This document shows, piece by piece, positions 9,401-61,222 of a stretch of 64,000 nt of DNA. Below the pieces are notes generated by a model. That model saw nothing but the letters and a program-made list of their open reading frames with translations, had not been told where the DNA came from and ran no database searches. This DNA comes from Corbicula japonica (lineage: Eukaryota > Mollusca > Bivalvia > Venerida > Cyrenidae): positions 186,001 through 250,000 of the forward strand of contig JAZAYU010000360.1 of the NCBI GenBank assembly GCA_038501625.1, written 5' to 3'. Position 1 is the stretch's first letter; the number at the start of each line of letters is the position of its first letter. The translations under genes were made by a program, and so were the position numbers.

Positions 9401-12400
9401 TTCATAAAATCAAGTAGAAAGCTCGAAAAAAAAGATTCCTCAGCGCGAGAATAAGTTCCTTTTTGTAGAAAATAGCAGGTAATATGCCGTGAAAAAAAAC
9501 TTTAATTTGATTTTGACGCAAGTTTTAAGGTTTTAGAACTGTAATATTTCCGCCAAACATCGACTTATGCCGTCACTAATTCGTTTTTTTCCGAACGCCG
9601 ATTCGTACGTTTCCGGTTGATACTAAGGAGTCTGTCCACTCTTTAGGTGTTTTCCGCGATTATGACGTCATTAATAACTAAATCAAATAATAACAAAGTG
9701 CGGATATAAAATTGATGTAAAGTAAACAAATATTTTCGTAACAAATACTCAAAATAAGTCTATAGACGAACAACACTCATTAATGAATAGAGGTTATATG
9801 AAATTGACTACCGTGTCATTAATCCATCGTGGCGTAATGGTAACGCTCAGGACTATTCATTTTGACGGACTCGGTTCAATCCTCGGGAGAGGAACCTTTT
9901 TTCCCCTTATTCTTCTTTTTTTAATTATTGTGAGGAAATTTTTGGAGAAAATAGTATAATCAATAGGTTTAAAATTCGGAAATAATTGTTATTATTCTTC
10001 ATCTTCATTTAGTAGCCATGAAAACTGAAATATCGTAATGATATTATTACAAAATACTGACTCTTATAATACAGCAACAGAATCACGATATGAAACTAAA
10101 ATGATTATGGTATCTGCACTTTCATTTAGGAAAATGTTGCTATTTTATTGTCTCTATAATTGAACAGTAATTTTGTGATACTAGTCTTATAAAACTAATT
10201 TTATGTGTTTACACGATGAATTTTTCCTTTAAAACAATGCTGTGGTTGCTATGGTTACGGTTGCCAAAATTACTTTTTTGATGTTAAATTTAACCCAGCA
10301 TAGCTGATTACTTGCGTATTTCTTGTTTTTCAAAAAATTTGAGGGGGTTATAAAAAAATCACCATTCGTAAACCAAGCCCTTTGGTTTTTGTGGTTTTTA
10401 ACCGTTTGGTCTGGGCCATAGGTACCTATTTTATAGGCCAATAAAATGAAATCGAAACGGTGAGGTGCTCTTTATTTTTTGATTCTATACACATTGCAGT
10501 TAATTTTAATGTATAACACAATTATTTTACTGCATTAAACATGCACAAAAATCACAGATAAAAACTAGCTTAATTTGTGCAGCTCGGAAACATGTGCATT
10601 TCCGAAGATGGGGTACACTTTAAAAAAGTCAATTTATCAAGTGTTAGAAATAAATTCTAAACATAATGCTTGTTTTTTTCCTGTTCAGATATGATGTCCT
10701 TAAACAATTAGCCTTTATTTTTCAAAATTTTACAAGGTTTCAAAGAAATAGAGATGAAATTAGCTTCTAGTATGTTTGATTTTACAGCCCATTTTCCGAA
10801 ACAGAGGGTCCCCTTCTAAAATACTAAATTTCTCGAGTTACGCACGGTACATGTTTTTTAAAACTCATGTTTAGATGTCTAAATGGATGTACTTGGAAAT
10901 GAAAACAACACAATCCCAATCTGCAAAAGGGCATATTACAGTTCTAAAACCTTAACTTCCCTACTGAAAATCGCTCCATTATCAAATCCATAGCAATCGA
11001 CGTGGATGAATTTATGGCAATGTAGCCACTTATCAATGACGGACTTTCGCCTGGGGTAATTGAAAAAATGAGGTTTTCGTAGAAAGCGAATGAGGGAATG
11101 TCCAACTATAATAATGGCTAAATAATTCCCTTGGATTTCTCCACGGTAATGTCAAAATATGGCACTTTAAAAAGTGTTAGGTGAAAAAAGTGGTGTTAAT
11201 TGATAAGGTAAGTTTTTCTTTCAAACAGGGTTTCGTTTTAAAACAAAACAAGTTTATGGTTGATTGACCTTTGATTTTTCGCAATTGCAGGATAATTCGA
11301 GCAAAAAAAATTCAAACCAATTACTTTGTATTAAATGTTAGTGACAAATCGAAGACGGTTATTGACAATTAATTACAGATAATTCTAAGGGTTTAGTCAA
11401 TTTCTATTTAATAGAAGAGTATAAAAAGCCGCATGTAAGGTCATTGGGCGAGTGTAGTTACCTTGATTACATTTTAAACGATGTGCAAAACTGAGGATAC
11501 AGCAGATAAAAAACAGTATTGATATACTTTCCGGTATTTTCCGTGTGACATTCCGACTTTAAACGGACCGGTGTGCTTAACTGAGAATACAGCAGATAAA
11601 AACATTATTGATATACTTTCCGGTATTTTCCGTGTGACATTCCGACTTGAAAAGATGTGCTTAACTGAGGATAAAGCAGATAAAAACAGTATTGATATAC
11701 TTTCCGGTATTTTCCGTGTGACATTCCGACTTGAAAAGATGTGCTTAACTGAGGATAAAGCAGATAAAAACAGTATTGATATACTTTCCGATATTTTCCG
11801 TGTGACATTCCGACATCAGTTGACGAGTACACTACAGAACCGGTGAAACACTGATGTTTCATATAACAACCATGTCTATTCAACGTATCTACGACATTTT
11901 TCTTGTCGTATGGCTTTCCCCAAAGTGTCATGGTAACAGGAACAGAATTCCTACCGGTGTAACCCAGTGATACATGCCTGTAATACAGTAGAAGAGGAAT
12001 CTAACTGCGAGAAACAAATGGTAAAAAATCAAACGAATTAAAAAGATTAACTATTCATATCAGGTATTGCCACATTCAGAAAAAACAGCCTCCCCACACA
12101 GTCAAGAAGAAAAGAGAGAGAGCATAGTTAATAAAATGGTCAGTTTCAAAAAACGACATCACAAAAAATTAACAAAACTGAGAACCCGATGTGTTACCGC
12201 CTTGGAACAGTCAGTGGCAAATCAAATTGCCACTGGGTGTTTAAACCAGGTTCAAGGATGCACCAACCTCACACTTGCCCCAACAGGTTCTCATATCACA
12301 AAACAAGTACATGCATGTTGTCTTGGTGAAATAACTCCAACCTACCTATCGGCTCAAAAGTGACATTCCTAAAGAGTTGACTAGTTTTCGTTTGAGTTTT

Positions 12401-30601: not shown

Positions 30602-30757
30602 CTATAATACAAACACAACATGTCGCGTCAACCACCACATTAGAATCGGCTGTGCTATAGATATGGTCAGAATGAGATATAAGCTCCGCTTTGTTCCTGA
30701 TCCGCTGTAACCCTCATGTTCAGACCTTGGCATGATTTGACTTTTTAATGTCCGCAC
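30602..30757 (-). CDS. YIF1: YIF1 exon 9: C-terminus and stop
   Basis: Acceptor CGTTTCAG; the frame ends at TAG (30604-30602). It reads [20 protein letters not shown], then [20 protein letters not shown] and TRHVVFVL. The final hydrophobic span and short tail match the ...QPMLMYWLTFHLVR end of YIF1B. A minus-strand AATAAA follows at 30560-30555. Confidence 0.95.
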   Translation of the reverse strand: MRTLKSQIMPRSEHEGYSGSGTKRSLYLILTISIAQPILMWWLTRHVVFVL

Positions 30758-33700
30758 CTGAAACGATGAAATTAATGTTAACCCTTTCCTCCATAGACAT
30801 ATCTGTATTGCATGAGCGAACAGTTTAGATCCAAATCAGCCGGCACGTCCGTGCTGTCTGATCAGGATCTAAACTGTTTGCTTTTGATTAGTTAGGTTAT
30901 TTCTGAACAAAATATCACCGGTGCAGATCCTGATCTGATGGCACGGATGTGCCAGCTGATCTGGATCTACACTGGTTGAACATGCATAAAAATGTGTATA
31001 TATGGAGGAAAGGATTAAGTCATAATACAAAAAGCTTGTCTTTTAACCTTTAACTCCATATCAACAGGTATTAAGGCATGTGAAAATAGTGTAGATCTAG
31101 ATCAACTCGCACATCTATCATCTGATCTGGATTTACAGTGATCAGAAAAGATTCTGATCAGATGTGCAGGCTGATATGGATCTACACTGTTAATGAAGAA
31201 ATACAGCCATATCCCAAGGAGTAAAGGGTGTAATTATTTCATTCTGTGAGCTTAAATATTTTCATTACACATTGGACTTAGTGCTACAAATTGACAATGA
31301 AGCTAAACACAGAATTTTATTACCTGTTCATGAAAATGTTAGCATTTTTGTTGAACATTAAAAGAAATAAAATTTTGAAGTGCTCAGGGAATGTATTCTT
31401 GCTGAATTGAGTTTTATCCACATAACAGTGGGCACCTAATACCATGGCGAAATAATCTACTAATACATTGCCATAAAACCTTGATTATTTTTACTTGCAT
31501 AACTCACCAAAAAGAAGACTATAGCAACACTAAACCATGCCAAGACCCCATAATACCCTGTGCTTTGAAACAGCATGCCTGCCAGTAGGCTAAATATCAT
31601 TCTGAAATAGCAAGGAAACAATCAGAACAAAATGTCAACTTACGATTCAAATTGTTATAAACCTTATAAAGTAACCTACACAACCAAATATGCTGGCATA
31701 TCATTTTAATCTCGTGTGAATGAATTTTTTACAAATATATTTTCACTCCTTTTTTCCAGTGCTGTTACTACTGTTTGTCCCTTGCGATCATGATCAAGCC
31801 CATTTAATCTAGTTTAAAGATAGAATACCTCTGAAGTAATTGACTAGGATCATGAACTCAAGGTTTTTTTCACAAATAAGGAACTTTACAAATAGGCAGC
31901 AATGTCTGCTGATTTCAGAATGTGCTTGTGTAATCAAGACATCATTTTCTCAGTCATAAATCAAAATTTTAATCAAAAATGTTCTGAAGTGATCATTGTT
32001 ATCTTTGGTGATCATGTCAGTTTTATTGATTGTTCATGATCATGATTGTGATCTTAAAAAGGTCATGTCAGTTTCAGTGATCATGTAATTGTTCATGATC
32101 ATGTGATCTTAAGTGATCATTTGATCTTTGGTCATCATGCCAGTTTTAATGATCATGTCACTGTTCATGATCATGTGATCAACTGTGATTATGCCATCCT
32201 TGGTGATCATGTTAGTTTTAGTGATCATGTGATCTTACCAATCATGTGATCCTAAGTAATGGCAATGGTGAAACAGTTTCTAACATAAAACATAAAACTA
32301 AATTGTTACTCACCCAACAAACTTGTACCCAGTGTAGGCAAGTACATCCATGTACTTTAACTCAGTCGAAAGGTTCATTATGTACAGACTGAGCATCACA
32401 GCCACTAGCTCGATGATAAGCCACACCAAGGCAGTACTGGCCTGGATACCTAAGTGTTCTGGTGTAAACCTGAAATAGTAAGGTTACAAGTAACTTGATG
32501 ATAAGCTACACCAAGGCAGTACTGGCCTGGATATCCAAGTGTTCTGGTGTAAACCTGAAATAGTAAGGTTACAAGTAACTCAATGATAAGCCATACCAAG
32601 GCAGTACTGGCCTGGATACCTAAGTGTTCTGGTGTAAACCTGAAATAGTAAGGTTACAAGTAACTTGATGATAAGCCACACCAAGGCAGTACTGGCCTGG
32701 ATACCTAAGTGTTCTGGTGTAAACCTGAAATAGTAAGGTTACAGGTAGCTTGATGATAAGCCAGACCAAGGCAGTACTGGCCTGGATACCTAAGTGTTCT
32801 GGTGTAAACCTGAAATAGTAAGGTTACAAGTAGCTCGATGATAAGCCAGACCAAGGCAGTACTGGCCTGGATACCTAAGTGTTCTGGTGTAAACCTGAAA
32901 TAGTAAGGTTACAAGTAACTTGATGATAAGCTACACCAAGGCAGTACTGGCCTGGATATCCAAGTGTTCTGGTGTAAACCTGAAATAGTAAGGTTACAAG
33001 TAACTCAATGATAAGCCATACCAAGGCAGTACTGGCCTGGATACCTAAGTGTTCTGGTGTAAACCTGAAATAGTAAGGTTACAAGTAACTTGATAATAAG
33101 CCACACCAAGGCAGTACTGGCCTGGATACCCAAGTGTTCTGGTGTAAACCTGAAATAGTAAGGTTACAAGTAGCTTGATGATAAGCCACACCAAGGCAGT
33201 ACTGGCCTGAATACCTAAATGTTCTGGTGTAAACCTGAAATAGTAAGGTTACAAGCAGCTTCATGATAAGCCACACCAAGGCAGTACTGGCCTGAATACC
33301 TAAGTGTTCTGGTGTAAACCTGAAATAGTAAGGTTACAAGTAGCTTGATGATAAGCCACACCAAGGCAGTACTGGCCTGAATACCCAAGTGTTCTGGTGT
33401 ATACCTGAAATAGTAAGGTTACAAGTAGCTTGATGATAAGCCACACCAAGGCAGTACTGGCCTGAATACCTAAATGTTCTGGTGTAAACCTGAAATAGTA
33501 AGGTTACAAGCAGCTTCATGATAAGCCACACCAAGGCAGTACTGGCCTGAATACCTAAGTGTTCTGGTGTAAACCTGAAATAGTAAGGTTACAAGTAGCT
33601 TGATGATAAGCCACACCAAGGCAGTACCGGCCTGGATACCCAAGTGTTTAGGTGTAAACCTGAAATAGTAAGGTTACAAGTAGCTCGATGATAAGCCACA

Positions 33701-36700
33701 CCAAGGCAGTACTGGCCTGGATACCTAAGTGTTCTGGTGTAAACCTGAAATAGTAAGGTTACAAGTAGCTCGATGATAAGCCACACCAAGGCAGTACTGG
33801 CCTGAATACCCAAGTGTTTAGGTGTAAACCTGAAATAGTAAGGTTACAAGTAGCTCGATGATAAGCCACACCAAGGCAGTACTGGCCTGGATACCTAAGT
33901 GTTCTGGTGTAAACCTGAAATAGTAAGGTTACAAGTAGCTCGATGATAATCTAGACCAAGGTGGTACTGGCCTGGATACCCAAGTGTTTAGGTGTAAACC
34001 TGAAATAGTAAGGTTACAAGTAACTTGATGATAAGCCACACCAAGGCAGTACTGGCCTGGATACCCAAGTGTTTAGGTGTAAACCTGAAATAGTAAGGTT
34101 ATAAGGAGCTCGATGATAAGCCACACCAAGGCAGTACTGGCCTGAATACCCAAGTGTTTAGGTGTAAACCTGAAATAGTAAGGTTACAAATAACTTGATG
34201 ATAAGCTACACCAAGGCAGTACTGGCCTGAATACCTAAATGTTCTGGTGTAAACCTGAAATAGTAAGGTTACAGGTAGCTTGATGATAAGCCAGACCAAG
34301 ACGGTACTGGCCTGGATACCCAAGTGTTTAGGTGTAAACCTGAAATAGTAAGGTTACAAGTAGCTCGATGATAAGCCACACCAAGGCAGTATTGGCCTGG
34401 ATACCCAAGTGTTCTGGTGTAAACCTGAAATAGTAAGGTTACAAGTAGCTTGATGATAAGCCACACCAAGGCAGTACTGGCCTGAATACCTAAATGTTCT
34501 GGTGTAAACCTGAAATAGTAAGGTTACAAGTAGCTTGATGATAAGCCACACCAAGGCAGTACTTGCCTGAATACCCAAGTGTTCTGGTGTAAACCTGAAA
34601 TAGTATGGTTACAAGTAGCTTGATGATAAGCCACACCAAGGCAGTACTGGCCTGGATACCTAAGTGTTCTGGTGTAAACCTGAAATAGTAAGGTTACAAG
34701 TAGCTCGATGATAAGCCACACCAAGGCAGTACTTGCCTGGATACCTAAGTGTTCTGGTGTAAACCTGAAATAGTAAGGTTACAAGTAACTTGATGATAAG
34801 CCACACCAAGGCAGTACTGGCCTGGATACCTAAGTGTTCTGGTGTAAACCTGAAATAGTATGGTTACAGGTAGCTCGATGATAAGCCACACCAAGGCAGT
34901 ACTGGCCTGAATACCTAAGTGTTTAGGTGTAAACCTGAAATAGTAAGGTTACAAGTAGCTTGATGATAAGCCACACCAAGGCAGTACTGGCCTGAATACC
35001 TAAGTGTTCTGGTGTAAACCTGAAATAGTAAGGTTACAGGTAGCTTGATGATAAGCCAGACCAAGGCAGTACTGGCCTGGATACCCAAGTGTTCTGGTGT
35101 AAACCTGAAATAGTAAGGTTACAAGTAGCTCGATGATAAGCCAGACCAAGGCAGTACTGGCCTGGATACCCAAGTGTTCTGGTGTAAACCTGAAATAGTA
35201 AGGTTACAAGTAGCTCGATGATAAGCCACACCAAGGCAGTACTGGCCTGGATACCTAAGTGTTCTGGTGTAAACCTGAAATAGTAAGATTACAAGTAGCT
35301 CGATGATTAGCCAGACCAAGGCAGTACTGGCCTGGATACCTAAGTGTTCTGGTGTAAACCTGAAATAGTAAGGTTACAGGTAGCTTGATGATAAGCCAGA
35401 CCAAGGCAGTACTGGCCTGGATACCTAAGTGTTCTGGTGTAAACCTGAAATAGTAAGGTTACAAGTAACTTGATGATAAGCCACACCAAGGCAGTACTGG
35501 CCTGGATACCTAAGTGTTCTGGTGTAAACCTGAAATAGTAAGGTTACAAGTAACTTAATGATAAGCCACACCAAGGCAGTACTGGCCTGGATACCCAAGT
35601 GTTCTGGTGTAAACCTGAAATAGTAAGGTTACAAGTAGCTCGATGATAAGCCAGACCAAGGCTGTACTGGCCTGAATACCCAAGTGTTTAGGTGTAAACC
35701 TGAAATAGTAAGGTTACAAGTAGCTTGATGATAAGCCAGACCAAGGCAGTACTGGCCTGGATACCCAAGTGTTCTGGTGTAAACCTGAAATAGTAAGGTT
35801 ACAAGTAACTTAATGATACGCTACACCAAGGCTGTACTGGCCTGGATACCCAAGTGTTCTGGTGTAAACCTGAAATAGTAAGGTTACAAGTAGCTCGATG
35901 ATAAGCCAGACCAAGGCGGTACTGGCCTGGATACCTAAGTGTTCTGGTGTAAACCTGAAATAGTAAGGTTACAGGTAGCTTGATGATAAGCCAGACCAAG
36001 GCGGTACTGGCCTGGATACCTAAGTGTTCTGGTGTAAACCTGAAATAGTAAGGTTACAAGTAGCTTGATGATAAGCCACACCAAGGCAGTACTGGCCTGA
36101 ATACCTAAGTGTTCTGGTGTAAACCTGAAATAGTAAGGTTACAGGTAGCTTGATGATAAGCCAGACCAAGGCGGTACTGGCCTGGATACCCAAGTGTTTA
36201 GGTGTAAACCTGAAATAGTAAGGTTACAGGTAGCTTGATGATAAGCTACACCAAGGCAGTACTGGCCTGGATACCTAAGTGTTTAGGTGTAAACCTGAAA
36301 TAGTAAGGTTACAGGTAGCTTGATGATAAGCCAGACCAAGGCGGTACTGGCCTGGATACCCAAGTGTTCTGGTGTAAACCTGAAATAGTAAGGTTACAGG
36401 TAGCTTGATGATAAGCCAGACCAAGGCGGTACTGGCCTGGATACCCAAGTGTTCTGGTGTAAACCTGAAATAGTAATGTTACAAGTAGCTCGATGATAAG
36501 CCACACCAAGGCAGTACTTGCCTGAATACCCAAGTGTTCTGGTGTAAACCTGAAATAGTAAGGTTACAAATAACTTGATGATAAGCTACACCAAGGCAGT
36601 ACTGGCCTGAATACCTAAATGTTCTGGTGTAAACCTGAAATAGTAAGGTTACAGGTAGCTTGATGATAAGCCAGACCAAGACGGTACTGGCCTGGATACC

Positions 36701-39700
36701 CAAGTGTTTAGGTGTAAACCTGAAATAGTAAGGTTACAAGTAGCTCGATGATAAGCCACACCAAGGCAGTATTGGCCTGGATACCCAAGTGTTCTGGTGT
36801 AAACCTGAAATAGTAAGGTTACAAGTAGCTTGATGATAAGCCACACCAAGGCAGTACTGGCCTGAATACCTAAATGTTCTGGTGTAAACCTGAAATAGTA
36901 AGGTTACAAGTAGCTTGATGATAAGCCACACCAAGGCAGTACTTGCCTGAATACCCAAGTGTTCTGGTGTAAACCTGAAATAGTATGGTTACAAGTAGCT
37001 TGATGATAAGCCACACCAAGGCAGTACTGGCCTGGATACCTAAGTGTTCTGGTGTAAACCTGAAATAGTAAGGTTACAAGTAGCTCGATGATAAGCCACA
37101 CCAAGGCAGTACTTGCCTGGATACCTAAGTGTTCTGGTGTAAACCTGAAATAGTAAGGTTACAAGTAACTTGATGATAAGCCACACCAAGGCAGTACTGG
37201 CCTGGATACCTAAGTGTTCTGGTGTAAACCTGAAATAGTATGGTTACAGGTAGCTCGATGATAAGCCACACCAAGGCAGTACTGGCCTGAATACCTAAGT
37301 GTTTAGGTGTAAACCTGAAATAGTAAGGTTACAAGTAGCTTGATGATAAGCCACACCAAGGCAGTACTGGCCTGAATACCTAAGTGTTCTGGTGTAAACC
37401 TGAAATAGTAAGGTTACAGGTAGCTTGATGATAAGCCAGACCAAGGCAGTACTGGCCTGGATACCCAAGTGTTCTGGTGTAAACCTGAAATAGTAAGGTT
37501 ACAAGTAGCTCGATGATAAGCCAGACCAAGGCAGTACTGGCCTGGATACCCAAGTGTTCTGGTGTAAACCTGAAATAGTAAGGTTACAAGTAGCTCGATG
37601 ATAAGCCACACCAAGGCAGTACTGGCCTGGATACCTAAGTGTTCTGGTGTAAACCTGAAATAGTAAGATTACAAGTAGCTCGATGATTAGCCAGACCAAG
37701 GCAGTACTGGCCTGGATACCTAAGTGTTCTGGTGTAAACCTGAAATAGTAAGGTTACAGGTAGCTTGATGATAAGCCAGACCAAGGCAGTACTGGCCTGG
37801 ATACCTAAGTGTTCTGGTGTAAACCTGAAATAGTAAGGTTACAAGTAACTTGATGATAAGCCACACCAAGGCAGTACTGGCCTGGATACCTAAGTGTTCT
37901 GGTGTAAACCTGAAATAGTAAGGTTACAAGTAACTTAATGATAAGCCACACCAAGGCAGTACTGGCCTGGATACCCAAGTGTTCTGGTGTAAACCTGAAA
38001 TAGTAAGGTTACAAGTAGCTCGATGATAAGCCAGACCAAGGCTGTACTGGCCTGAATACCCAAGTGTTTAGGTGTAAACCTGAAATAGTAAGGTTACAAG
38101 TAGCTTGATGATAAGCCAGACCAAGGCAGTACTGGCCTGGATACCCAAGTGTTCTGGTGTAAACCTGAAATAGTAAGGTTACAAGTAACTTAATGATACG
38201 CTACACCAAGGCTGTACTGGCCTGGATACCCAAGTGTTCTGGTGTAAACCTGAAATAGTAAGGTTACAAGTAGCTCGATGATAAGCCAGACCAAGGCGGT
38301 ACTGGCCTGGATACCTAAGTGTTCTGGTGTAAACCTGAAATAGTAAGGTTACAGGTAGCTTGATGATAAGCCAGACCAAGGCGGTACTGGCCTGGATACC
38401 TAAGTGTTCTGGTGTAAACCTGAAATAGTAAGGTTACAAGTAGCTTGATGATAAGCCACACCAAGGCAGTACTGGCCTGAATACCTAAGTGTTCTGGTGT
38501 AAACCTGAAATAGTAAGGTTACAGGTAGCTTGATGATAAGCCAGACCAAGGCGGTACTGGCCTGGATACCCAAGTGTTTAGGTGTAAACCTGAAATAGTA
38601 AGGTTACAGGTAGCTTGATGATAAGCTACACCAAGGCAGTACTGGCCTGGATACCTAAGTGTTTAGGTGTAAACCTGAAATAGTAAGGTTACAGGTAGCT
38701 TGATGATAAGCCAGACCAAGGCGGTACTGGCCTGGATACCCAAGTGTTCTGGTGTAAACCTGAAATAGTAAGGTTACAGGTAGCTTGATGATAAGCCAGA
38801 CCAAGGCGGTACTGGCCTGGATACCCAAGTGTTCTGGTGTAAACCTGAAATAGTAATGTTACAAGTAGCTCGATGATAAGCCACACCAAGGCAGTACTTG
38901 CCTGAATACCCAAGTGTTCTGGTGTAAACCTGAAATAGTAAGGTTACAAGTAGCTTGATGATAAGCCACACCAAGGCAGTACCTGCCTGGATACCTAAGT
39001 GTTCTGGTGTAAACCTGAAATAGTAAGGTTACAAGTAACTTGATGATAAGCCACACCAAGGCAGTACTGGCCTGGATACCTAAGTGTTCTGGTGTAAACC
39101 TGAAATAGTAAGGTTACAAGTAACTTAATGATAAGCCACACCAAGGCTGTACTGGCCTGGATACCCAAGTGTTCTGGTGTAAACCTGAAATAGTTAGGTT
39201 GTAATTACTAAAATTCTGAATACTGCAAGACTATTGTAACTTTATTGACACAATTTAATAACAGAGCATGGGGAACATATTACATACATGACAAAATGAT
39301 AGAAATATGATTTCTCAATCATTCACTTCTTGATTCATTAGGTTATCTCTCTAAAGGAAGCAACCATGGTAGATAATGATCAAAAAGCAAGAATGTGCCA
39401 GCTGATCTGGATCTACAATGTTCGCTCATGCAATAAAACACGTGACATCTGTCTGATCAGGATCTGCACTGGTTGCATTTTGGTATGAAATAACCTAATG
39501 AACCAAAAAGCGAACAGTTTAGATCCTGATCAGACAGCACGGATGTTCCAGCTAATTAAAATAAGGGTTAAACTAATTCTCACCTGCTTTGAGTACCCAG
39601 CACAATTCCCGACACCAGCACGTATGTTACAAATGCCATAACTGAAATTAGAGGCAATCATTGCAAGCATTTTGCATAATACAGAATGAATAGAATATTG

Positions 39701-42700
39701 CCAAAATTTACAATTGTTTGTGTTTAAAATTCATTTTATATTGATAATGCTAGTTTTATTCTTCAAATACTTAACCCCTTAATAAATAACTAAATATATA
39801 AGAACAAAGTAAGAACGGAATAAAGACAGGTTAAGGCATCGCCACACTCCTCCCAATCCTATTCATCGATAAAATAAAAATCATCAAATCTCAGTAATGA
39901 CAAAATCCATTTCAATGAAACTTTGCACAAATGAAGGTTACTAATGTATCTTTATTTTGCATACAGTAAGACAAAATAGAAAAGTAAAGAAACAAAGCTA
40001 GACCTAAAAATTCCTTGAAATCTATTTACATAAATTCACAAAAACTAGGCGATGCAGAACATAACTTTAAATTCCCTCGTGAGCGCAATGATACTGACAA
40101 GAAAATGTTGTGTACTTCGTAAAAAACATTCAACTATTAAAAGAGAAATCAGTGATTGTCATCGGTTTAGGCGACCAGGAAATTGAAGGTCAAATACACT
40201 TTTACTAATATCTCTGAAGTTTACATAAGTAAATCATGAGGACACAATAAATTGTTGTCAGTATCATATTACTCATGTGGGCATTTAAAAGGATGTTTTG
40301 TGTTCTTTAGTTTTTGTGAATTTATGTAAATAGAAGTTGAGGGAATTTTTAGATCTCGCTATTTTTCTTTACTTTTCTCATATGTCTTACCATCTGTAAA
40401 ATAAAGATACATTAATAACATACACTTGTGCAAAGTTTCATTTAACAGCATTTTGCCGTTATTGAGATTTTGATAATATTATTTTTTATCGATGAATAGA
40501 ATTGGGAGGAGTGTGACAGGCCCTTAAATCAATGATGTAAGATATATAATTTAACCCAATATACACCAAGGATATTGCTGTTATCCATAGACAAACTGCC
40601 ACCACATCTGTCCCAACAGCTCAGGATCTACACCCTTTGCTTTTTCATTCACTAGGTTATTTCTGAACAAGATCCTGATCCGATAGCCCAGATTTGCCAT
40701 CTGATCCAAAATTAGAGAAAAGACATACTCTGACGTTGATAAACCATTTGTGACCTCGAAAAAACATTAACTCTATATATAAGGGTTTTATGGAATGTGC
40801 CATATCCGATGGAAATAGATGAAAAGGGAACTTTGAAGACCCTTGACCACGACAAATATGAACATATTGCAGGATCGGTTTGATTGAGCCTGTTCATGGG
40901 CAGTAATAGAAATGCTTTTTACTGCCCAAGCCGCCTAGCCCTGGATTGAGCACAACTCAGTATTTACACTAATAAAATGTACAATTTCAGACTTCCCGAA
41001 AGTTGAAAAAAAGTGTCAGACATTCGGTCAGACAAGATGTGAAAATCTGTCTGACCGAAACAAATTCTGTCTGACCGAAACATTTAAAAATAAAATAAGC
41101 AAAACACGGTATTGAGGGTGTTTTTATTTTTCTTTATGTAGCATATAGAGGATATTTGTTTTACCATTGTAAGACAGAATATATTTTCTTTTTTATTTCA
41201 CTTAGAAAATCGCCTGATTTACTGGAGAGTAAAATCACTCCCTACTATTACATGATCAGTTTTTCAAAATTCAATAGTTCATCTTGGAAGTCAAAGCATT
41301 AACGATCTTTTATCCATTTTGTATAAAATCTACAAACCAGTAAGTGTTTTTGGTATTTTTTTCTTTTGCAGCTTTTCTTCATTTGTTACTTTTCTCGTTT
41401 TACCGGGAATTGCTCCAGTGAAATATTTTTAAAACGTCATTTTGTGAGTCCGAAATTACGAAATGGAAATAGGTAAAAATGGGCGAAATGTAGGAAACGG
41501 TAGACTCCTACCCAGTCGCAGTCAGTCGTTTTCTGATGAAGAATGGTCATGCGCAGCGAAACAGTCAAAGAAGCGGCAGTGGTACGAATTGTCATGAAGA
41601 CGAATACGTAAATTATTGCACTCGGATATCCTCACTTATTTCCCTCGGAACAGTCTTGAGTAAAAACATCGAGCAAAACTGTAATTTAGCCAATAAAATT
41701 GGAATATGCAGATCAAATGTTTGCCGGACAATCGGTCCGACAATATATGAAATCATGCCGGACCGGCCTAAAATTTACCGGACAGGTCCGACGGTCCGGC
41801 GACTTTCGGGAAGTCTGCAATTTTGATCCATCCCAAACGATGGTATGCATATGGTGGTGAACATGGAACCTTCAATGCAGTATTTTCAGATTAATACTAT
41901 TCCATGTTCAGCGGCGTATGGTCCCCAGATAAAAGAATGGGTTTGCCCTAAACAATGTTTGTTTGTTTGTTTGTTTGGGGTTTAACACCTGGTTTCAACA
42001 TCTTTCTGGTTATATCCCGGCGGTCAGTCCACCTAACCGGTGTTCCTGGGTCTCTAACCAGTACTAACCAATTTCTCCGCAAGCGACTGACTGCTTCCTC
42101 ACTTGAATCAGAGGTGAGGGACAAATGACTCTCAGACGCAATGTCCGAGTTCAATTGTCACGGAGAAATTTTTCCCGCCTCGGCTGGGGATCGAACTCAT
42201 TGCCCTAAACAAGAAAACAAAGGGTGGTACTAAACAAAATAGAATTTTGAGAGGGGATCTTAGAATATAAATCCTGCATACCGAAGGCAAAGTTTAAAAA
42301 GCAAGAAGTATATCCCTGGGGGTTATTGAACAATATCCAAATTAATATTGGCTGGGATATTGAAACCACCCATCTTTAAATTGGCAGAAACATTAAAAAC
42401 AAAAAGTAAATTTCGAAGTACTATTGACAAAGTACATAAATATCGTGCTTGGCGACCTCCAAAGGATGTAACTGAGTAAAGGCCTTGAGATAAACAGATA
42501 GAAATAATCATACAACCTGGTATATATAAATCTGGAGCATTCTCATCAAATCTCGGTGCTACTGGCTGATCTTGATCAAACTTTATAGACCAATCCTAAA
42601 ATGTCAAGGTCAAATATTGAAATTCACATTCAGAGCGTGTATAATAACAGGGCACTCATTTGGCCATTTTTAGGGCCGAATATGGGCCCCATTCCCCTGT

Positions 42701-45700
42701 CAAAATAGTATGTATTTTTCCCCTATTTCAGAAAAAAATTCCCCTTAAAAATCCACCAAAAATAAAATTGAAAAAATTAATTAAACAGTAACAAAATTGT
42801 TTTATTTGTAAGTCTACAGTCACAAAATATGCTTGCTATTATAATCAGAGATAGAAAACAATGTTATGAGTGTGTGTGACCTTTTAGTAAAAAATGGATA
42901 TATGATTGAAAATTCCCCTTTTTGTCTTAAAATGACACAAAATTCCCCTTCCTGCGGGTATGGGTACCTGTCCCCGAAAGTTGTCTAGTGCCCTGAATAA
43001 GTAACAACTATACTTTTCAACGACAAAGCTAATTTTTTTTACAAATTTTAGATTAGCAGAAAATTATTTGGGTATACATGTATTTAAGAATTTTGTACAT
43101 TTAAAGAGTTATTTACTTCAGCCTTAAATATTTGTGACCAACAGACAATTGGACTCAGCAATCCCCATACATCTCCTTTTCTTCAAACGGACAGGGCTTT
43201 GTTTCAGTGCCAGAAGAAGAGGCCCATGCCCTCCCTATAAATTGGGAAAAGTAGTGTCATTTTGTCTCTCACAGTAAATGAACAAAAAAATTGATGTAAA
43301 GTAATGTTTTAGGGAAAACTGCATTTTTTTTTTTAAAGTAAAGAGGGCCTGTAAATTGCCCCTACTTAAACAAGAGCCGTCAGAGACGGGTTATGCTCCC
43401 CAACGCCGCTTTGTCACAAATACTTTTTTGTTAGAACAGGAAGAATTTGTAAGAAAGATATTGTATTTGAAAGTTTCCTTTACGATTCAAACAGAAAGCA
43501 TTTTACAATATTGTACAAAAATAAGACAAAAAAAATGAGAAATTTCAAAGGGCACTAACTCAAAAATGAATAAAGCAAGAGTTATGGTTCTTGTGCATTG
43601 CACTGCTCCGCATTGAGATCATTCTACTTATGAAGTTTCAAGTTCAGAAACTTTTATACTTTGTGAGATATGCACCAGATAAAACTAAGTAAGAGAAATT
43701 TCAAAGGGAAATAAATAAAAAATCAATAAAGCAAGATTTATGGTTCTTGTGCACTGCACTGCGCCTCATTGAGATCTATCTACTTATGAAGTTTCAACTT
43801 CCTAACTCTTATACTTTGTGAGATATGCCCTGGACAAAAAGTAAGTATGGTAAATTTCAAAGGGCATTAACTCTATAATGAATAAAGCAAGAGTTATGGT
43901 TCTTGTGTGCTGCACTGCTCCTCAACGAATTCATTCTACTTATGAAGTTTCAAGTTCATAACTCTTATACTTTGTGTGATATGCCCTGGACAAAAAATAA
44001 GTAAGAGAAATTTCAAAGGGCAATAAATCAAAAATCAATAAAAGCAAGAGTTATGGTTCTTATGCACTGCACTGCTCATTATTGAGATCTATCTACTTAT
44101 GAAGTTTCAACTTCATAACTCTTATACTTTGTGAGATATGCCCCGGACAAAAAGGAAGTATGAAAAATTTCAAAGGGCAATAACTCAAAAATGAATAAAG
44201 CAAGAGTTATGGTTCTTGTGCACTGCACTGCTCCTCCCTGAGATCTATCTAGTTATGAAGGTTCAACTTCATAACTCTTATACTTTGTGAGATATGCCCC
44301 AGACAAAAAGTAAGTATGAGAAATTTGAAAGGGCAATAACTCAAAAATGAATAAAGCAAGAGTTATGGTTCTTATGCACTGCACTGCTCCACATTGAGAT
44401 CTATCTACTTATGAAGTTTCAACTTCATAACTCTTATACTTTGTGAAATATGCCCCGGACAAAAAGTAAGTATGAGAAATTTCAAAGGGCAATAACTCAA
44501 AAATGAATAAAGCAAGAGTTATGGTTCTTGTGCAATGCACTGCTCCTCATTGAGATCTATCTACTTATGAAGTTTCAACTTCATAACTCTTATACTTTGT
44601 GAGATATGCCCCGGACAAAAAGTAAGTATGAGAAATTTCAAAGGGCAATAACTCAAAAATGAATAAAGCAAGAGTTATGGTTCTTGTGCACTGCACTGCT
44701 CCTCATTGAGATCTATCTACTTATGAAGTTTCAACTTCATAACTCTTAGACTTTGGGAGATATGCCCCGGACAAAAAGTAAGTATGAGAAATTTCAAAGG
44801 GCAATAACTCAAAAATGAATAAAGCAAGAGTTATAGTTCTTGTGCACTGCACTGCTCCTCAACGAGATCTAACTACCTATGAAGTTTAGTCTTGATACCT
44901 CTCATAGTTTTTGTGTAATTGTCCGGACAATATTATGACGGACGGACGGACGGACGAACGGACGAACGGGACGGACGGACGGACAAAGCGACAACTATAT
45001 GCTCCCCCGAATTTCGGGGGGAGCATAAAAAGAAAAAGCCCTGATGGGCGACACCAAAAGTGTAGAAAATACTTACTGTGTGTGTGTAAGGACATACTAA
45101 CATAAATAACTTCTTTCCAACATATGATGTGTCAACAGCAAAGTAATATTTCAATTTTGATGTGGATACATATTTTTCTAACTGAAATAGAAAATTAATA
45201 AACTGTTTAATTTGTGAAAAGGACCATCATTCAAACTTAATAATGGTATGATTTCAATCAGACATCATTACCTGTAGACATTCAGGTAGAAATCTATTAA
45301 AAACTTGACTTTATGGTAACTAAATTGTTAGATTTATTTATTGATTTGCTTGAAAAAGGATGACCAATTTTTCTTTATATAAGAAGAGGAATCATTTAAG
45401 TTAAATATCAGAAATTTACATTTATACTTTAAAATATGAGCTTCTTGACAAAATGAAATACTTTTATTAATTATTAAACATTTTTTTTTAATTTATTAAG
45501 CAAGAAGATCTTAATTTGACTGTTTTAGACAAGAGGTCTGCATATTCTGGCAGAAATTTTTTTTTTGCAATGATTAGCTTAACAACGAGTTTCACAACCA
45601 AGGAAAAGTATAAATTTACATTTTTATTGACTAGATCTTTTCCTTGGCCAGCTAGTGAAGTACCATACTGCATAGCCATATTTGCCATTGGGTCATTTAA

Positions 45701-48700
45701 GATCTGTTGTCCTGGAAACTGGTTCCAAGCTGGTTGCTGGCCAGGGGGAGGACCCCCATACTGGTTCCCTAAAAACAGAACAGAAAAAAACTCATGCCAT
45801 TGTTCATCAGTAAATTCTTTGTGTGGTACTTAAAACTGCATATTCACTGTCCAGGTGCCAAGGTTATCAAGCTGAGATTGGAAACCAGTCTCAAATCTCA
45901 AGCATCTGATTGGCTGAAATGGCGACTGGTCGCCATTTCAGCCAATCAGATGCTTGAGATTTGAGACTGGTTTCCATGCTCAGCTTTATAACCTTCAGGC
46001 CAGGGTTGAACACATCAATGTCTCTGATGTGGTTAGTATTAATACAGAGTAATGCCTACAAATGACTACACAGGATCAAAAGTTGCCGAAATTTGGACTT
46101 ACAAGTATGTTTCTGGACGGATTGTGAGTGAATTTTTACAGTGTTAGTATATTCGCTTGTATATTGACTGTGTAACAATATAAAATCACTCTTTTGTACT
46201 GTTTTCATTTTTTAGAGACATGTTTTTTTTAAGACAGCTTTTGGTTTGGTAATCACTTCTTGCTAAGTAGTAAGTATGATATTGACCAGCAGATGCAGGG
46301 CTTTTCATCCTTATATAACAGAGGCCTATAAAAGGCCTCTTCCTAATCCAAAAATATAGTATTCTTTCCCAACTGCGGCAGAAATTCTTCCCAAAATGCT
46401 AGGTACATGTAAGATGTCCAAAAATTGTTAAAACTCCTCTGAGGGTTGTTAGAAAAAATGAAGTGCATAAAAAATAAGATTTAAGTTAAAAACACCTATT
46501 ACTTTTCAATTTTACGAACTAGAACCCATCTTTCAATTAATTTTGTTTTCCCAAAATATGCAATTATCGCGCATAAATTTCCCAATTGGAAAGGCCAGGG
46601 CCTCTTCCCAATTTACTGATGAAAAGCCCTGAGATGTCGGAACATCTTTTCAATATCTGTGCCCAAGATCATACAACTAAATCTGGAAATCAGTCTCAAA
46701 TCTCAAGGATCTGATTGGCTGAAATGGCGACTGGTCTTAGTTTTGTGATCTTTGGCCCAGGAATGTACCTGGATCATAAAAGCCTGTCTGTGGTGGGCCA
46801 TATCCTTGCTGTGGGGGTCCACGTTGTACACTAGTATCATCAAACAGCTGAGGCTTCTGACCTCGACCTTTTGCTCCCTTTCTTTTGCTGGAGGCAGGTG
46901 CTGAAACAAGTAGAGAGCAAATTAAGCAGAGTTCTTGTTTAAACTTACAGCCTAGTCTATTTTTAACTTTGTGGAAAATGGGCAGAACTAAACTTTACCA
47001 GAAATCTGGTAACAAGATCTCTACTCCGGCAGGCTTAGAGGTCCTGTAACTGGATTTGCATCAAGTCTTGTAAAGGGTGTCTAAAGGTCCTGTAATATAT
47101 GTGAACATAGGTTATTTCGTCAGTCTAGGGGTTTAGTTACCACACATTTGTCCAATTGTCCAAATATCAACTGGGACACACTGACAGTAGAAAGAGGCAC
47201 AACAGAGAGGTACAACAAGCGCTGATAGACTTTGCAACAGAACATAACCTTACTCAAGTCCGCCAACAACCCACCAGAGATAACGACATTCTTGACATAG
47301 TTTTCAACTCGAATCCACCATTAGTGAAAACATCAACATCAACATCAACATCAATCCCAGGCATCAGTGACCATGCTATGGTAGTCACAGATATTGACAT
47401 CTTACCACACTATATAAGTCAGAAAAGGAGAAAAATATATCAATTCAACAAAGCTAACTGGGAAAACATCAACAAAGATTTCCAAACATTAGCCCTAGAC
47501 TTACAAAAGAACAAAGACAACACTGTAGAATCACTATGGAACCAATTCAAGAAGAAGATAGAGGACGCAATATCCAAAGAAGTGCCCTCAAAGATGTCAA
47601 GCAAAAGGAAATCCCTTCCCTGGTTCAGCCACAAACTTACATGTAAGAGAATGGTGAAGAGGAAAGCAAGGCTCTACAAGATGGCCAATGAGACATTAAC
47701 TGGATCCACTTTAAAGTCACATTAAACTTGCCAAAACGATTTCTTTTTTCATTGTGAAAATTAATTATCCACGTTGACCCTTTTCAAAAGAAAGTATAAA
47801 TGACCAATTATTTATGTCCTCAAATAATCCCCAATCATTGAGACCCGGTCCGAATAGTATTTTTGTAGCCCACAAAATTACTAACCAATGTTTACAATAA
47901 CTCGGCGAAAAGTTATCGTTCTTTTCCGTAAGTGGGCCGTAAGAACGCAGTGACGTCATTCTCTATAATTAGCGACCCTCGCCTGCCGAGAGTTGCCGAA
48001 AATCAGCTCGCAAAGATTCGCTGTTTGTTTTGTAAACAAAATAAATGATCCGAAAAACGCCCAAAACATGCTGTAAATCAATAAGATAATACCATTTTCT
48101 TATTGTAAGGTTTATTTTTTGTGTTATTATTCATACAGGTGAAATCTAAAATGTTTTGGTTAATACAAAATATGCTGTTTGGCAAGTTTATTGTGGCTTT
48201 AAGACCTACCAACGGGAGTGCAAAAAAGAATTTAAAAAACCTGAAATTCAACATATAAACACCGCCATAGAAAAAGGACTAGAAGAAAACAACACTAAAC
48301 CATCCTGGTCACTCTGGTGATAAGTGTAATCCAGAAGACAAGACAACATAGGAGTACAACCGCTTAAACACAAAGGCCAGCTCTTCAACAACATCAAAGA
48401 TAAAGCACAGTTCTTGGTTGACCAGTTTAAGTCAGTGTTCACAAACCACAATAGCAACTGACCAGAAACAAGTAAAAGACCCAAATTCCCACTCAAACCA
48501 CTGATAATAACAACAAAAGGTGTCGAAACACTATTTTCCAGTATTAAAATCAACAAAGCAAGAGGACCAGATGATATACCTAACTTCATACTGAAAAATT
48601 GTGCAAAAACTCTAGCTCCCGCTCTCTGTCACATATTCTAGGGACACTACCAGCTTACTGGTTAAGCACAAACAAGATGCATGTTTTCAAGAAGGTTGAC

Positions 48701-51700
48701 TCCCATCTTGCGGAAAATTAAAGGCCTGTCTCTTTAACCTGTCTCTTTAACCTGTGTTAGTTGCAAGCTGCTCGAACACATCATCTGCAAACATATTCTA
48801 AACCATTTGGAAAAGAACAAGATCTTAACTTCGCTCAACCAAGGTTTTAGATCTGGATACTCATGCGAAACGCAACTTATAACTACAGTATACCACCTAC
48901 TCCAGATCCACGATGAAGGTGACCAAATCGACATAGTCATCCTCGATTTCTCCCAGGCGTTCAACATGGTCCCGCACGAAAGCCTCCTATACAAGATGCA
49001 GCAGTATGGCATCGATGGCAACATCGATGACTGGCTGAGAGACTTCCTGACCAAGAGAACCACAGAGGTGTAGAATTTCACTCGACCGCTCGCCATGGCG
49101 AGTAAATGATCTGTTGGGTCAGTGAAGCGGCTGAAACACTCGACCGACCGGGCGAGTTAACTTTTTAGCAAAGCACATGTGTTTTCTTCTACATGAAATA
49201 TTTTCACTTTGTTTACAAAAAACAATTCGATTACAGTATTTCAGTCGATTTCCGGAGTATTTGGAACGTTTCTGATGTAAAGGTAACAGCAGCGATTTAT
49301 TTTTATCCTCATTGGGTTTCCCAAATCAGAACGAGGCTGCAAGTGCACATATTTTCCTGCTATATGTCAAAATGTCGAAACAAACAAGATTACGTTTTTA
49401 ACACAAGGTAGGGGTGATGACGAAAAGCGAGAGAGTTAGTGAGACAGTAAGAAAGAGATAGAACGAATAGAAAAAATGATAATTGCAACAGAAAGAGTAT
49501 TTTATTTAAAATGTAAAGCGAGTGTACTTTCTGTAAGGGCGAGTGCACTTACTCATTCACTCGACCTGCAGGGCGAGTGGGTCAAAGTAAATTTCTACAC
49601 CTCTGAACCATTAAGGTAATAGTTGAAGGAGAGACATCAGCGGCTGTCCATGTTGACTCAGGTGTACCACAAGACACTGTACTTGGCCCTCTAGCCTTCC
49701 TCTGTCATATCAACGACCTGCCAGAATGGGTCAAATATTCAGTTCGTCTCTACGCAGATGATTGTTAACTGTATAGACCCATAAAGTCCAGACAAGATCA
49801 TCTTGACCTCCAGTCTGACCTAATTGCCTTGGAGAAATGGGCAGAAACATTGGGCATGCGATTCAATCAGGGTTGGCAAAATAACAGCAAATATGAGTAT
49901 TTTCCATGCCGGCAGTATTTACCGGCAAATACTGGTCAATTGAATTGACCAGTCTGGAATTCATATAAATATACCTATTATCAGAATCATATATATTAAA
50001 TTTCAAGTTTACATATCAACTGCCATTATATTTATAATAAAGTTTAACACCACTATCAGTTATCCTTAATAAATAAATATTAAAGTACTGAAAAAGTGGC
50101 CATTTAAATTGACCACCTATGGAATTTATGCAATACCATGTATTCGTCATAGACAGCATTTGTACAACTCCAAAATTCAATAATTAACAATAATGGATTC
50201 AGCATTTAAGAGGGTTAATTTTAATTATAAACAAGTAATGTACATAAATAAATATACATGAATACAATATCAAATAAGGTTAGATCCAAAGATGCCTCTG
50301 TCTACCAGTCAATCTCTTCTTTCCCCCTAAGATATCTGTAACAGAAGACCAGTTTGGCAGCTTTCTGCAGTCATACCAATACACAACCATATACGTGCAC
50401 CTAGAAGAATCCTATAGGTTATTTTTGACACTTAACTGTTGCTTTTGTTGCCCCTGGCTAATACAGCCCTATGTATGAAACATGTTGTTTTAATAGTCTA
50501 GACCTTTTGACCTTGCTTGTTAAGTGTCACAGCAAGGTGAACAGGTGGATCAGCATTAATTTCTTACAAGTTTGTATTTTTATGTTCTAAGTAAAAAAAC
50601 AGTTCTTTTAGATTTATTTTTACTTTAAGTGCTTAAAGTCATCACTTGATATGAAATTTAATTAAAATTGTATCTGGGTAATTTAATTATTATTATGATT
50701 ATACATTAATAACGGTCAACTAAGTTAAGATTTCTGCAGTATTTTAAGGCAAAAAAACTCATCTGAGTAGTATTTACCAGTATTTTCCAGTATTTGCCAC
50801 TTTGGGGAGTATTTTCCAGGACGGTAAATACCAGGGGTGGTATTTACCGCCCAACCCTGGATTCAATGCTAAAAAGAGCTACATCATGAGCATCAACAAC
50901 CACTCATCAAACTACTACCAACTAGATAACCATATTCTACAACAAGTCCAAGAGAACCCATATTTAGGTGTCACACTATCAGAAGACCTTAAGTTTAACA
51001 AGCACATCAGCAAGATAACAAACAAAGCCAGTTCGACTCTAGGCTTCCTGAAAAGAAATTTCTAGCACTGCCCAACATTCTGCAGAAAAACAGCATACCT
51101 ATCACTTGTCAGATCAACCCTAGAATACAGCTCTATTTTATGGGATCCCCACCTTCAAGGAGATATTTACAAACTGGAAAAAGTCCAAAGGAAAGCAGCA
51201 AGATTCATCACAGGTGATTACAGATCCAAAGACCCAGGCTGCATTACTCGTATGCTGGAACAACTCGTGCTCCTGACACTACAGGAAAGAAGAAAGACGG
51301 CACGCCTAACCTTCTTCTTCAAGTTCAAGGTGGCTGAGGGGTTGGTGCCAGCTATGCCTACAGATATCTATCTGGTCCCAATTCGTGGTAAGAGACAATA
51401 AGACCAAAGTATTTTAGTGGCTCTATCAGTGCTAACCCAGTAACACAGTCAGCAATCAACAACTCTAAGTGCTATAAACCAATACAGTGTAATTGTGAAA
51501 TATACGAGGGTTGTCCCAATAAATCGTAGACTTTTTGAATAAAAAGAAAACTACTTAACATATCTTTAAGCAAATTTCACAGTTAGTTAAGACATCATTT
51601 GGTAACAAGTATGCTGAATTACGAAGAAAAATCTACTAAGATAAAGAAATTGCTTACACTTTTTTTCACCGTGAAAGCCATCGGCGGCGCACATCAAAAA

Positions 51701-60703: not shown

Positions 60704-60841
60704 CGGTTTGCTTCCAAGTTTTTGATGCTTGAAATTATGCCTATTATAATATTGAAGTCTCTAATTGTTTCTGTATTTTCTTAAATGTAGTTTCAAATTG
60801 TTAATTTTTGTTTATTAATTTCTTGTATATTTTTATTTCAG

Positions 60842-61222
60842 ATGTCGAGTATATTAGCCGAGTTGACGTGTTCCGTTTGTTTTGAGTTATACAAAGACCC
60901 TATTCGCTTGTCATGTTACCATGTATTTTGCCGATCGTGCATTTCGGATGTTCTAACGTCTGCGCAAGAGCGGTCACCCCGATGTCCCGAGTGCCAGGAA
61001 CCAATTGCAGAAACTTCTATCAGAAATTTTAGAACAGATTTTAAAATTAACTCAATGGTGCAAGCCACGAAAGATGGTCCAAGTTGTAAATGTTGTAGGC
61101 ATTACGAACATGCGGCGGAAGCTATTTGCAAGAATTGTAGAGTTTGTGTTTGTGTGGAAGCTCTTCAAGATCACGGCGGCCACAATTTGTGTGATGTAAA
61201 ATCTTATATCGATGAATACAAA
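60842..61222 (+). CDS. TRIM exon: RING finger and B-box
   Basis: 127 codons from ATG to donor GTAAGT. RING ligands are visible as CxxC, CxHxxC, CxxC, CxxC. The B-box has CxxC...CxxC...DHxxH but a crowded VCVCVEA where CxxC is usual, so one zinc ligand may be displaced. Confidence 0.9.

What the first reader, a model, noticed from the sequence alone, without database searches (positions are those of the whole stretch)
32314..39195. Eighty tandem copies of a splice acceptor plus partial exon inside YIF1
The 85-bp unit is exactly the end of an intron (TTACTATTTCAG) plus the first ~66 nt of exon 7. The transcript therefore carries 80 near-identical 3' splice sites in a row, and only the last leads into the full exon. 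Correct mRNA needs the spliceosome to pass 79 decoys, or to use a decoy and delete the rest. A minisatellite seeded by a live intron/exon border and grown to this size is, to my knowledge, unusual, and could affect splicing choice, circular RNA or small-RNA output.
Basis: partly seen in the sequence, partly recalled or inferred. Interest (0 to 1): 0.92.

Follow-up and report, generated by a model that had tools for sequence, protein, structure and literature searches.

The report
Eighty tandem splice acceptors in YIF1
In a clam-like genome, the junction between an intron and an exon of an ordinary membrane-traffic gene has been copied 80 times in a row; this is an extreme case of a little-known kind of repeat (a "mirage") in which, by the reading frame, only the last copy can give a correct message.

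Summary
On the minus strand a YIF1 gene (8 coding exons found; Pfam YIF1, E 5.6e-87) has its intron 6/exon 7 border in 80 head-to-tail 85-bp units, each 21 nt of intron end plus 64 nt of exon start. 79 of 79 spacings are 85; 80 of 80 units keep ACTATTTCAG|GT. A 28-unit block occurs twice without a difference: a recent duplication or an assembly repeat. Joining any of the 79 upstream acceptors to exon 7 gives a stop within 49-241 nt, so only acceptor 80 yields YIF1. A 98%-identical YIF1 ORF on a 1106-nt contig fits normal splicing in this or a close species. The kind is known: amphioxus "mirages" (PMC3087553, PMC3902484) reportedly leave splicing intact; this is a far larger member. A decayed donor-side one lies in the neighbouring HLTF-like gene. 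Best reading: a passive minisatellite whose decoys leave with a 7.1-kb intron, the last acceptor being chosen by exon definition (inferred; no RNA reads seen). Common array variants are mostly synonymous, hinting at exchange with the working exon.

The parts
32406..39205 (-). array of 80 x 85-bp units (21 nt intron end + 64 nt exon 7 start); 79 decoys plus the working copy
32314..32469 (-). YIF1 exon 7 (156 nt), working acceptor = copy 80, donor TGG|GTGAGT
39584..39641 (-). YIF1 exon 6 (58 nt), donor CAG|GTGAGA; 399 nt to the first decoy acceptor, 7114 nt to the working one
36569..38948 (-). first copy of a perfect 28-unit (2380 bp) duplication, units 4-31
34189..36568 (-). second copy of the 28-unit duplication, units 32-59
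39185..39205 (-). intron end of unit 1, ATTACAACCTAACTATTTCAG against CTTGTAACCTTACTATTTCAG in unit 2: the upstream border copy; columns 3 and 9 are private to it, column 2 is shared with unit 61
46769..46900 (-). YIF1 upstream coding exon (132 nt); the first coding exon was not found
45620..45768 (-). YIF1 exon (149 nt)
45077..45181 (-). YIF1 exon (105 nt)
42517..42595 (-). YIF1 exon (79 nt)
31508..31601 (-). YIF1 exon 8 (94 nt)
30602..30757 (-). YIF1 last exon to stop codon

Best explanation
A 'mirage' minisatellite. The segment from 21 nt before to 64 nt after the 3' splice site of YIF1 intron 6 was once duplicated in tandem (shown by the unit's make-up). It then grew by unequal exchange, with a 28-unit block doubled last (shown as sequence; mechanism inferred). 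The transcript therefore carries 80 acceptors that are equal over their last 10 intron and first 2 exon bases. The spliceosome joins exon 6 to the last one because only that copy forms a normal-sized exon (156 nt) with a consensus donor; copy 79 would need 241 nt, copy 78 326 nt, and so on (exon definition, inferred). The 79 decoys leave with a 7.1-kb intron. Mis-splicing to any decoy gives a stop after 49-241 nt of retained sequence, at least 136 nt before the exon 7/8 junction (shown by translation), and should be destroyed by nonsense-mediated decay (inferred). The array has most likely no job of its own.
For: Unit anatomy, 80 of 80 acceptors intact. Frame and stop analysis of the 80 acceptors: 79 decoys interrupted, acceptor 80 open. 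Gene model of 8 exons without an inner stop, YIF1 family. A 318-aa ORF, 98% identical over the query, exon 7 residues identical, on a contig of only 1106 nt, too short to hold these introns. Published mirages of the same anatomy in amphioxus with regular splicing by RT-PCR (passages of PMC3087553; of PMC3902484). A second, donor-side mirage in the next gene of the same contig. No unusual RNA fold: z -0.59 for three inner units, -1.46 for 255 nt over the working copy.
Against: No RNA reads were available, so acceptor choice is inferred; the contig of P0001 may come from a congener without the array, and its source label 'lgn' is not explained by the tool. Decoy acceptors are not weaker than the working one and come first in transcription (399 nt from exon 6). 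Common variants in the array are more often synonymous than chance (10 of 13, null mean 4.1, p 0.00025), which a purely passive intronic repeat would not show; simulated passive exchange with selection on the last unit gave only 0.36-0.39 synonymous.
Confidence: 0.78

Rival explanations
1. Unproductive-splicing dial: decoys are used in a fraction of transcripts, which are degraded, so copy number tunes YIF1 output.
For: 79 of 79 decoys lead to early stops at least 136 nt before the exon 7/8 junction; acceptor cores are identical in 80 of 80 units; the invariance of positions -8..+2 has chance 0.011 under random placing of the 29 variable columns, a window I chose after seeing the table.
Against: The longest invariant run is not exceptional by permutation (13 columns, p 0.089); decoys lack a near strong donor; published mirages do not disturb mRNA (passages).
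Confidence: 0.1
2. Units are fossils or partners of the working exon: short copying or conversion between exon 7 and the array keeps common variants under coding and splicing constraint.
For: 13 of 25 exonic substitution types synonymous, null 7.6, p 0.0067; types in 3 or more units 10 of 13 synonymous, null 4.1, p 0.00025; rarer types 3 of 12. Columns with a variant in 3 or more of the 80 units: third positions 8 of 21, first plus second 4 of 42, intron 1 of 19. Working copy equals units 63 and 65 over columns 1-81.
Against: Three common changes hit residues invariant among the 16 aligned YIF1 proteins: E179K in 15 units, E195K in 53 units, W191 to stop in 9 units including unit 79. No gradient of likeness towards the working copy (Spearman 0.02, p 0.89). 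Cut-offs were chosen after seeing the counts; with the duplicate block removed the common-versus-rare contrast fades at cut-offs 5 and 6 (Fisher 0.14, 0.25). In simulation, conversion from the working copy gave 0.38-0.57 and only copying of short blocks from the working end reached 0.85-0.9, on 20 common variants each; in the passive-exchange run rare variants were as synonymous as common ones (0.42 and 0.36), unlike the data.
Confidence: 0.35
3. Assembly artefact: true array is much shorter.
For: Two letter-for-letter copies of a 2380-bp block; no reads could be inspected.
Against: 42 distinct units in a varied order, exact 85-bp register with no indel; with one block removed 52 units remain.
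Confidence: 0.07
4. Stepwise (recursive) splicing through the CAG|GT borders, each acceptor becoming a donor.
For: All 80 borders read CAG|GT; the donor-like score of CAG|GTTTAC (0.46, 79 copies) is close to that of a real donor of this gene, CAG|GTTGTA (0.87) (scores use recalled human-like frequencies).
Against: GTTTAC is a poor match to a donor and far below those of exons 6-8 (8.6-10.8).
Confidence: 0.03

Closest known systems
Amphioxus 'mirage' minisatellites (Adh3, globins BflGb6 and BflGb9, troponin C, PGBD5)
   Same: Tandem repeats spanning an intron-exon border and carrying the splice site; BflGb6 has the same anatomy (intron 3' end plus exon 5' part); reported or inferred not to interfere with regular splicing (passages of PMC3087553, and PMC3902484).
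   Different: In the passages seen the globin case has 3 and 6 units of 150-160 bp and PGBD5 2-7 units of 60 or 108 bp; Adh3 units are 10-72 bp, their number not seen. Here 80 units (at least 52) of exactly 85 bp in a probable clam. In BflGb6 border copies escape homogenisation; here the working copy is identical to units 63 and 65 over columns 1-81.
IFI6 (6-16) minisatellite providing multiple splice donors (Turri et al. 1995)
   Same: A minisatellite that multiplies one splice signal in a gene (seen only as a cited title and a passage in PMC4526556; the original is not held).
   Different: Donor, not acceptor; repeat units are used as donors in mRNAs there; short units (recalled).
Donor-side mirage in the neighbouring HLTF-like gene (L009)
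   Same: Same contig; exon end plus donor repeated about three times.
   Different: 5' splice site, three copies 126 and 127 bp apart, decayed by stops in copies 2 and 3 and loss of the third donor.

Membership tests
Mirage minisatellite (intron-exon border repeat) | Tandem repeats whose unit spans an intron-exon border | tested here: met
   Unit = 21 nt intron end + 64 nt exon 7 start, 80 copies
Mirage minisatellite (intron-exon border repeat) | Repeats carry AG/GT splice signals | tested here: met
   TTTCAG|GT in 80 of 80 units
Mirage minisatellite (intron-exon border repeat) | Host gene is otherwise normal and spliced normally | tested here: inconclusive
   Open gene model of 8 exons; normal ORF on a 1106-nt contig of the same or a close species; no reads mapped
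Mirage minisatellite (intron-exon border repeat) | Length instability between haplotypes or cells | not testable with these tools
   One haplotype seen; a 28-unit perfect duplication suggests recent change
Mirage minisatellite (intron-exon border repeat) | Homogenisation inside the cluster, border copies excluded | tested here: inconclusive
   Unit 1 has two private differences in its intron part; the working copy 80 equals units 63 and 65 over columns 1-81
IFI6-type minisatellite | Repeat units act as alternative splice donors in mRNAs | tested here: not met
   The repeated signal is an acceptor, and 79 of 79 decoys break the frame
YIF1 gene | YIF1 domain over its whole length | tested here: met
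   PF03878 positions 1-245 of 245, E 5.6e-87; Ruditapes philippinarum 87%, Mactra antiquata 83%

The most novel reading that the evidence does not exclude
The array is not inert: the working exon and the decoys trade sequence, so that an 80-copy pool of mostly coding-compatible exon starts backs up and diversifies a live splice border. Its copy number also sets how much transcript is lost to decoy splicing. Such mirages may be frequent in this genome (two verified among 33 arrays of period 40 or more in 310 kb; the other 31 not tested for coding overlap).
Probability: 0.15. Interest if true: 0.75.

Novelty: new member of a known kind. Interest (0 to 1): 0.52.

Why it matters
It is a natural test of 3' splice-site choice: 80 acceptors with the same core sequence, differing mainly in place and downstream context. 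Whichever acceptor the cell uses separates 'first acceptor made' from 'acceptor that completes an exon'. It also extends exon-border minisatellites from lancelets to a probable clam, with far more units than the 2-7 in the passages I saw, and gives a setting for the published idea that such repeats seed new introns.

Tried and rejected
RNA structure hiding the decoys: three inner units fold about as well as shuffles (z -0.59), the working region slightly better (z -1.46).

Read-through of the array as a coding repeat: 85 is not a multiple of 3 and all 79 decoy frames stop within 241 nt.

Polar growth from the working end as source of the synonymous bias: no gradient. Simulated passive exchange gave 0.36-0.39 synonymous among common variants, conversion 0.38-0.57, below the observed 10 of 13.

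The 84-bp x 4 array at 11476-11814 next to the HIRAN-like exon as a further mirage: could not be decided.

A second YIF1 locus in the own genome: the query did not complete.
Full report
What was checked. TRF reports one array of 85 bp x 79.9 copies at 32406-39200. Read on the minus strand and anchored on the acceptor, it has 80 copies, first exon base at 39184, 39099... 32469, with 79 of 79 spacings equal to 85. A typical unit is CTTGTAACCTTACTATTTCAG (21 nt, intron) followed by 64 nt of exon 7; the real exon then goes on with GTGGCTG..., whereas the other copies run into the next unit. 80 of 80 copies keep ACTATTTCAG|GT.

The gene. Eight exons on the minus strand join into an open frame ending in a stop; the first coding exon was not located. 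The product covers the whole Pfam YIF1 model, E 5.6e-87. The nearest named relatives are clams: Ruditapes philippinarum 87%, Mactra antiquata 83%. The bivalve origin is thus inferred; the assembly is unnamed (1.07 Gb in 1630 contigs). Intron 6 is 7114 nt to the working acceptor and 399 nt to the first decoy; the other six introns in the model are 438-2875 nt.

Array history. There are 42 distinct units. 36569-38948 and 34189-36568, 28 units each, are identical: either the most recent growth step or an assembly repeat, so 52 units is the cautious minimum. Over lags 1-39, units near each other are about as different as distant ones (mean 4.8-5.6 of 85, except 2.5 at lag 28). The upstream border copy, unit 1, differs in its intron part (ATTACAACCTAAC against CTTGTAACCTTAC); two of these differences are private to it, one is shared with unit 61. 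The working copy is identical to units 63 and 65 over columns 1-81, and 18 of 80 units, the working one included, encode its first 21 residues.

What a decoy would do. I joined exon 6 to each of the 80 acceptors and read on through exon 7 into exon 8. Acceptor 80 is open. The 79 others stop after 49-241 nt of retained sequence, at least 136 nt before the exon 7/8 junction. Donor-like sites inside the array score at best 4.8-5.1 with a recalled human-like matrix, against 8.6 for exon 7. The six real donors scored range from 0.9 to 10.8, so inner donors cannot be ruled out. Pyrimidine content of the working acceptor (13 of 19) lies within the range of the six other acceptors counted, 12-17.

Expression. 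P0001, a 318-aa YIF1 98% identical to the model and identical over the exon 7 residues, lies on a 1106-nt contig. That is too short for the introns, so it reflects a spliced RNA of this or a closely related species. It does not prove that the animal had the array.

Imprint of constraint. Of 25 exonic substitution types 13 are synonymous (null 7.6, p 0.0067). Of the 13 types found in three or more units 10 are synonymous (null 4.1, p 0.00025, 4000 draws), of the 12 rarer types 3 (Fisher 0.013). Cut-offs were chosen after seeing the counts. With the duplicate block removed the result is the same at a cut-off of 3 (10 of 13), similar at 4 (9 of 12, p 0.00075, Fisher 0.034), and weaker at 5 (7 of 10, p 0.007, Fisher 0.14) and 6 (6 of 9, p 0.02, Fisher 0.25). 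Two of the types (columns 29 and 30) occur in the same 15 units and are probably one event. Columns with a variant in three or more of the 80 units number 8 of 21 at third codon positions, 4 of 42 at first and second, 1 of 19 in the intron. Against this: E-to-K changes at two residues invariant in the 16-protein alignment are common (15 and 53 units), and a W-to-stop change is in 9 of 80 units; there is no gradient of likeness towards the working copy. Simulated passive exchange with selection on the last unit gave 0.36-0.39 synonymous among common variants against 0.31 without selection; conversion from the working copy gave 0.38-0.57; only copying of short blocks from the working end reached 0.85-0.9, on 20 common variants each. 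I conclude that exchange with the working exon is suggested, not shown. The acceptor core's invariance is likewise only suggestive (p 0.011 for -8..+2; longest run p 0.089).

Not alone. About 2.3-2.7 kb before the window's first base, on the same contig, an array of about three copies 126 and 127 bp apart repeats the end of a SNF2-type exon with its donor. The first copy is followed by CACAG|GTAATT, the second by AGAG|GTAAAG, the third has lost it. The next exon, GTPIQNSM..., follows about 1.2 kb on. The exon matches RAD5 (E 0.00027) and, below the curated cut-off, the SNF2 domain. An exon in the window matches structures of HLTF (E about 0.0004), though Pfam gave no family for it; I read the gene as HLTF-like ('HIRAN' is recalled). 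Among 33 arrays of period 40 or more in 310 kb of the contig these two are verified as border repeats; the other 31 were not tested for coding overlap.

Known kind. [quoted passage not shown] BflGb6 repeats the intron 3' end plus exon 5' part, 6 and 3 units in two haplotypes, with regular splicing by RT-PCR; somatic instability is cited for Adh3. Passages of PMC3902484 add troponin C and PGBD5. The IFI6 minisatellite with splice donors is known to me from recall and from a cited title and a passage in PMC4526556; the original is not held. No mollusc case appeared in the listings of the three literature searches that were answered; the others failed, so absence from print is not claimed.

Verdict. 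Observation confirmed; interpretation partly supported. A real, extreme, probably passive member of a known but little-studied kind, valuable as a natural experiment on acceptor choice.

Noticed in passing
L009:7284-7665 (minus; C360:183284-183665, about 2.3-2.7 kb before window base 1): Donor-side 'mirage': about three copies, 126 and 127 bp apart, of the end of a SNF2/HLTF-like exon plus its donor; copies 2 and 3 carry stops. The first exon copy reads LDEC-AIRN where RAD5 has LDEGHTIRN, one residue short.
   Followed up: partly
11476-11814: 84-bp x 4 array directly behind the HIRAN-like exon of the HLTF-like gene (minus strand); the units hold AAA|GTATAT and a CTCAG after pyrimidines, so it may be another exon-border repeat.
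   Followed up: partly
C360:854-2206 and window 43535-44887: Two arrays of 156 bp x 8.7 copies, both 1353 bp, 228 kb apart on one contig and 99.6% identical in the same orientation, one of them inside a YIF1 intron: a recently copied or moved satellite block.
   Followed up: partly
C360:1-310000 (window plus flanks): 33 tandem arrays of period 40 or more cover 34 kb of 310 kb, among them 51 bp x 147 at C360:78205-85671; the contig is very rich in tandem repeats.
   Followed up: no
32063-32230: Degenerate 18/36/72-bp repeat built of TGATCATG palindromes in YIF1 intron 7, just downstream of exon 7 and the array.
   Followed up: no
48738-49070: Reverse transcriptase fragment (RVT_1, E 7.3e-12); open frames nearby at 47129-47722 and 51066-51398 had no Pfam match.
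   Followed up: no
60791-61234: RING-finger exon (zf-RING_UBOX, E 5.5e-11), perhaps of a TRIM-like gene.
   Followed up: no
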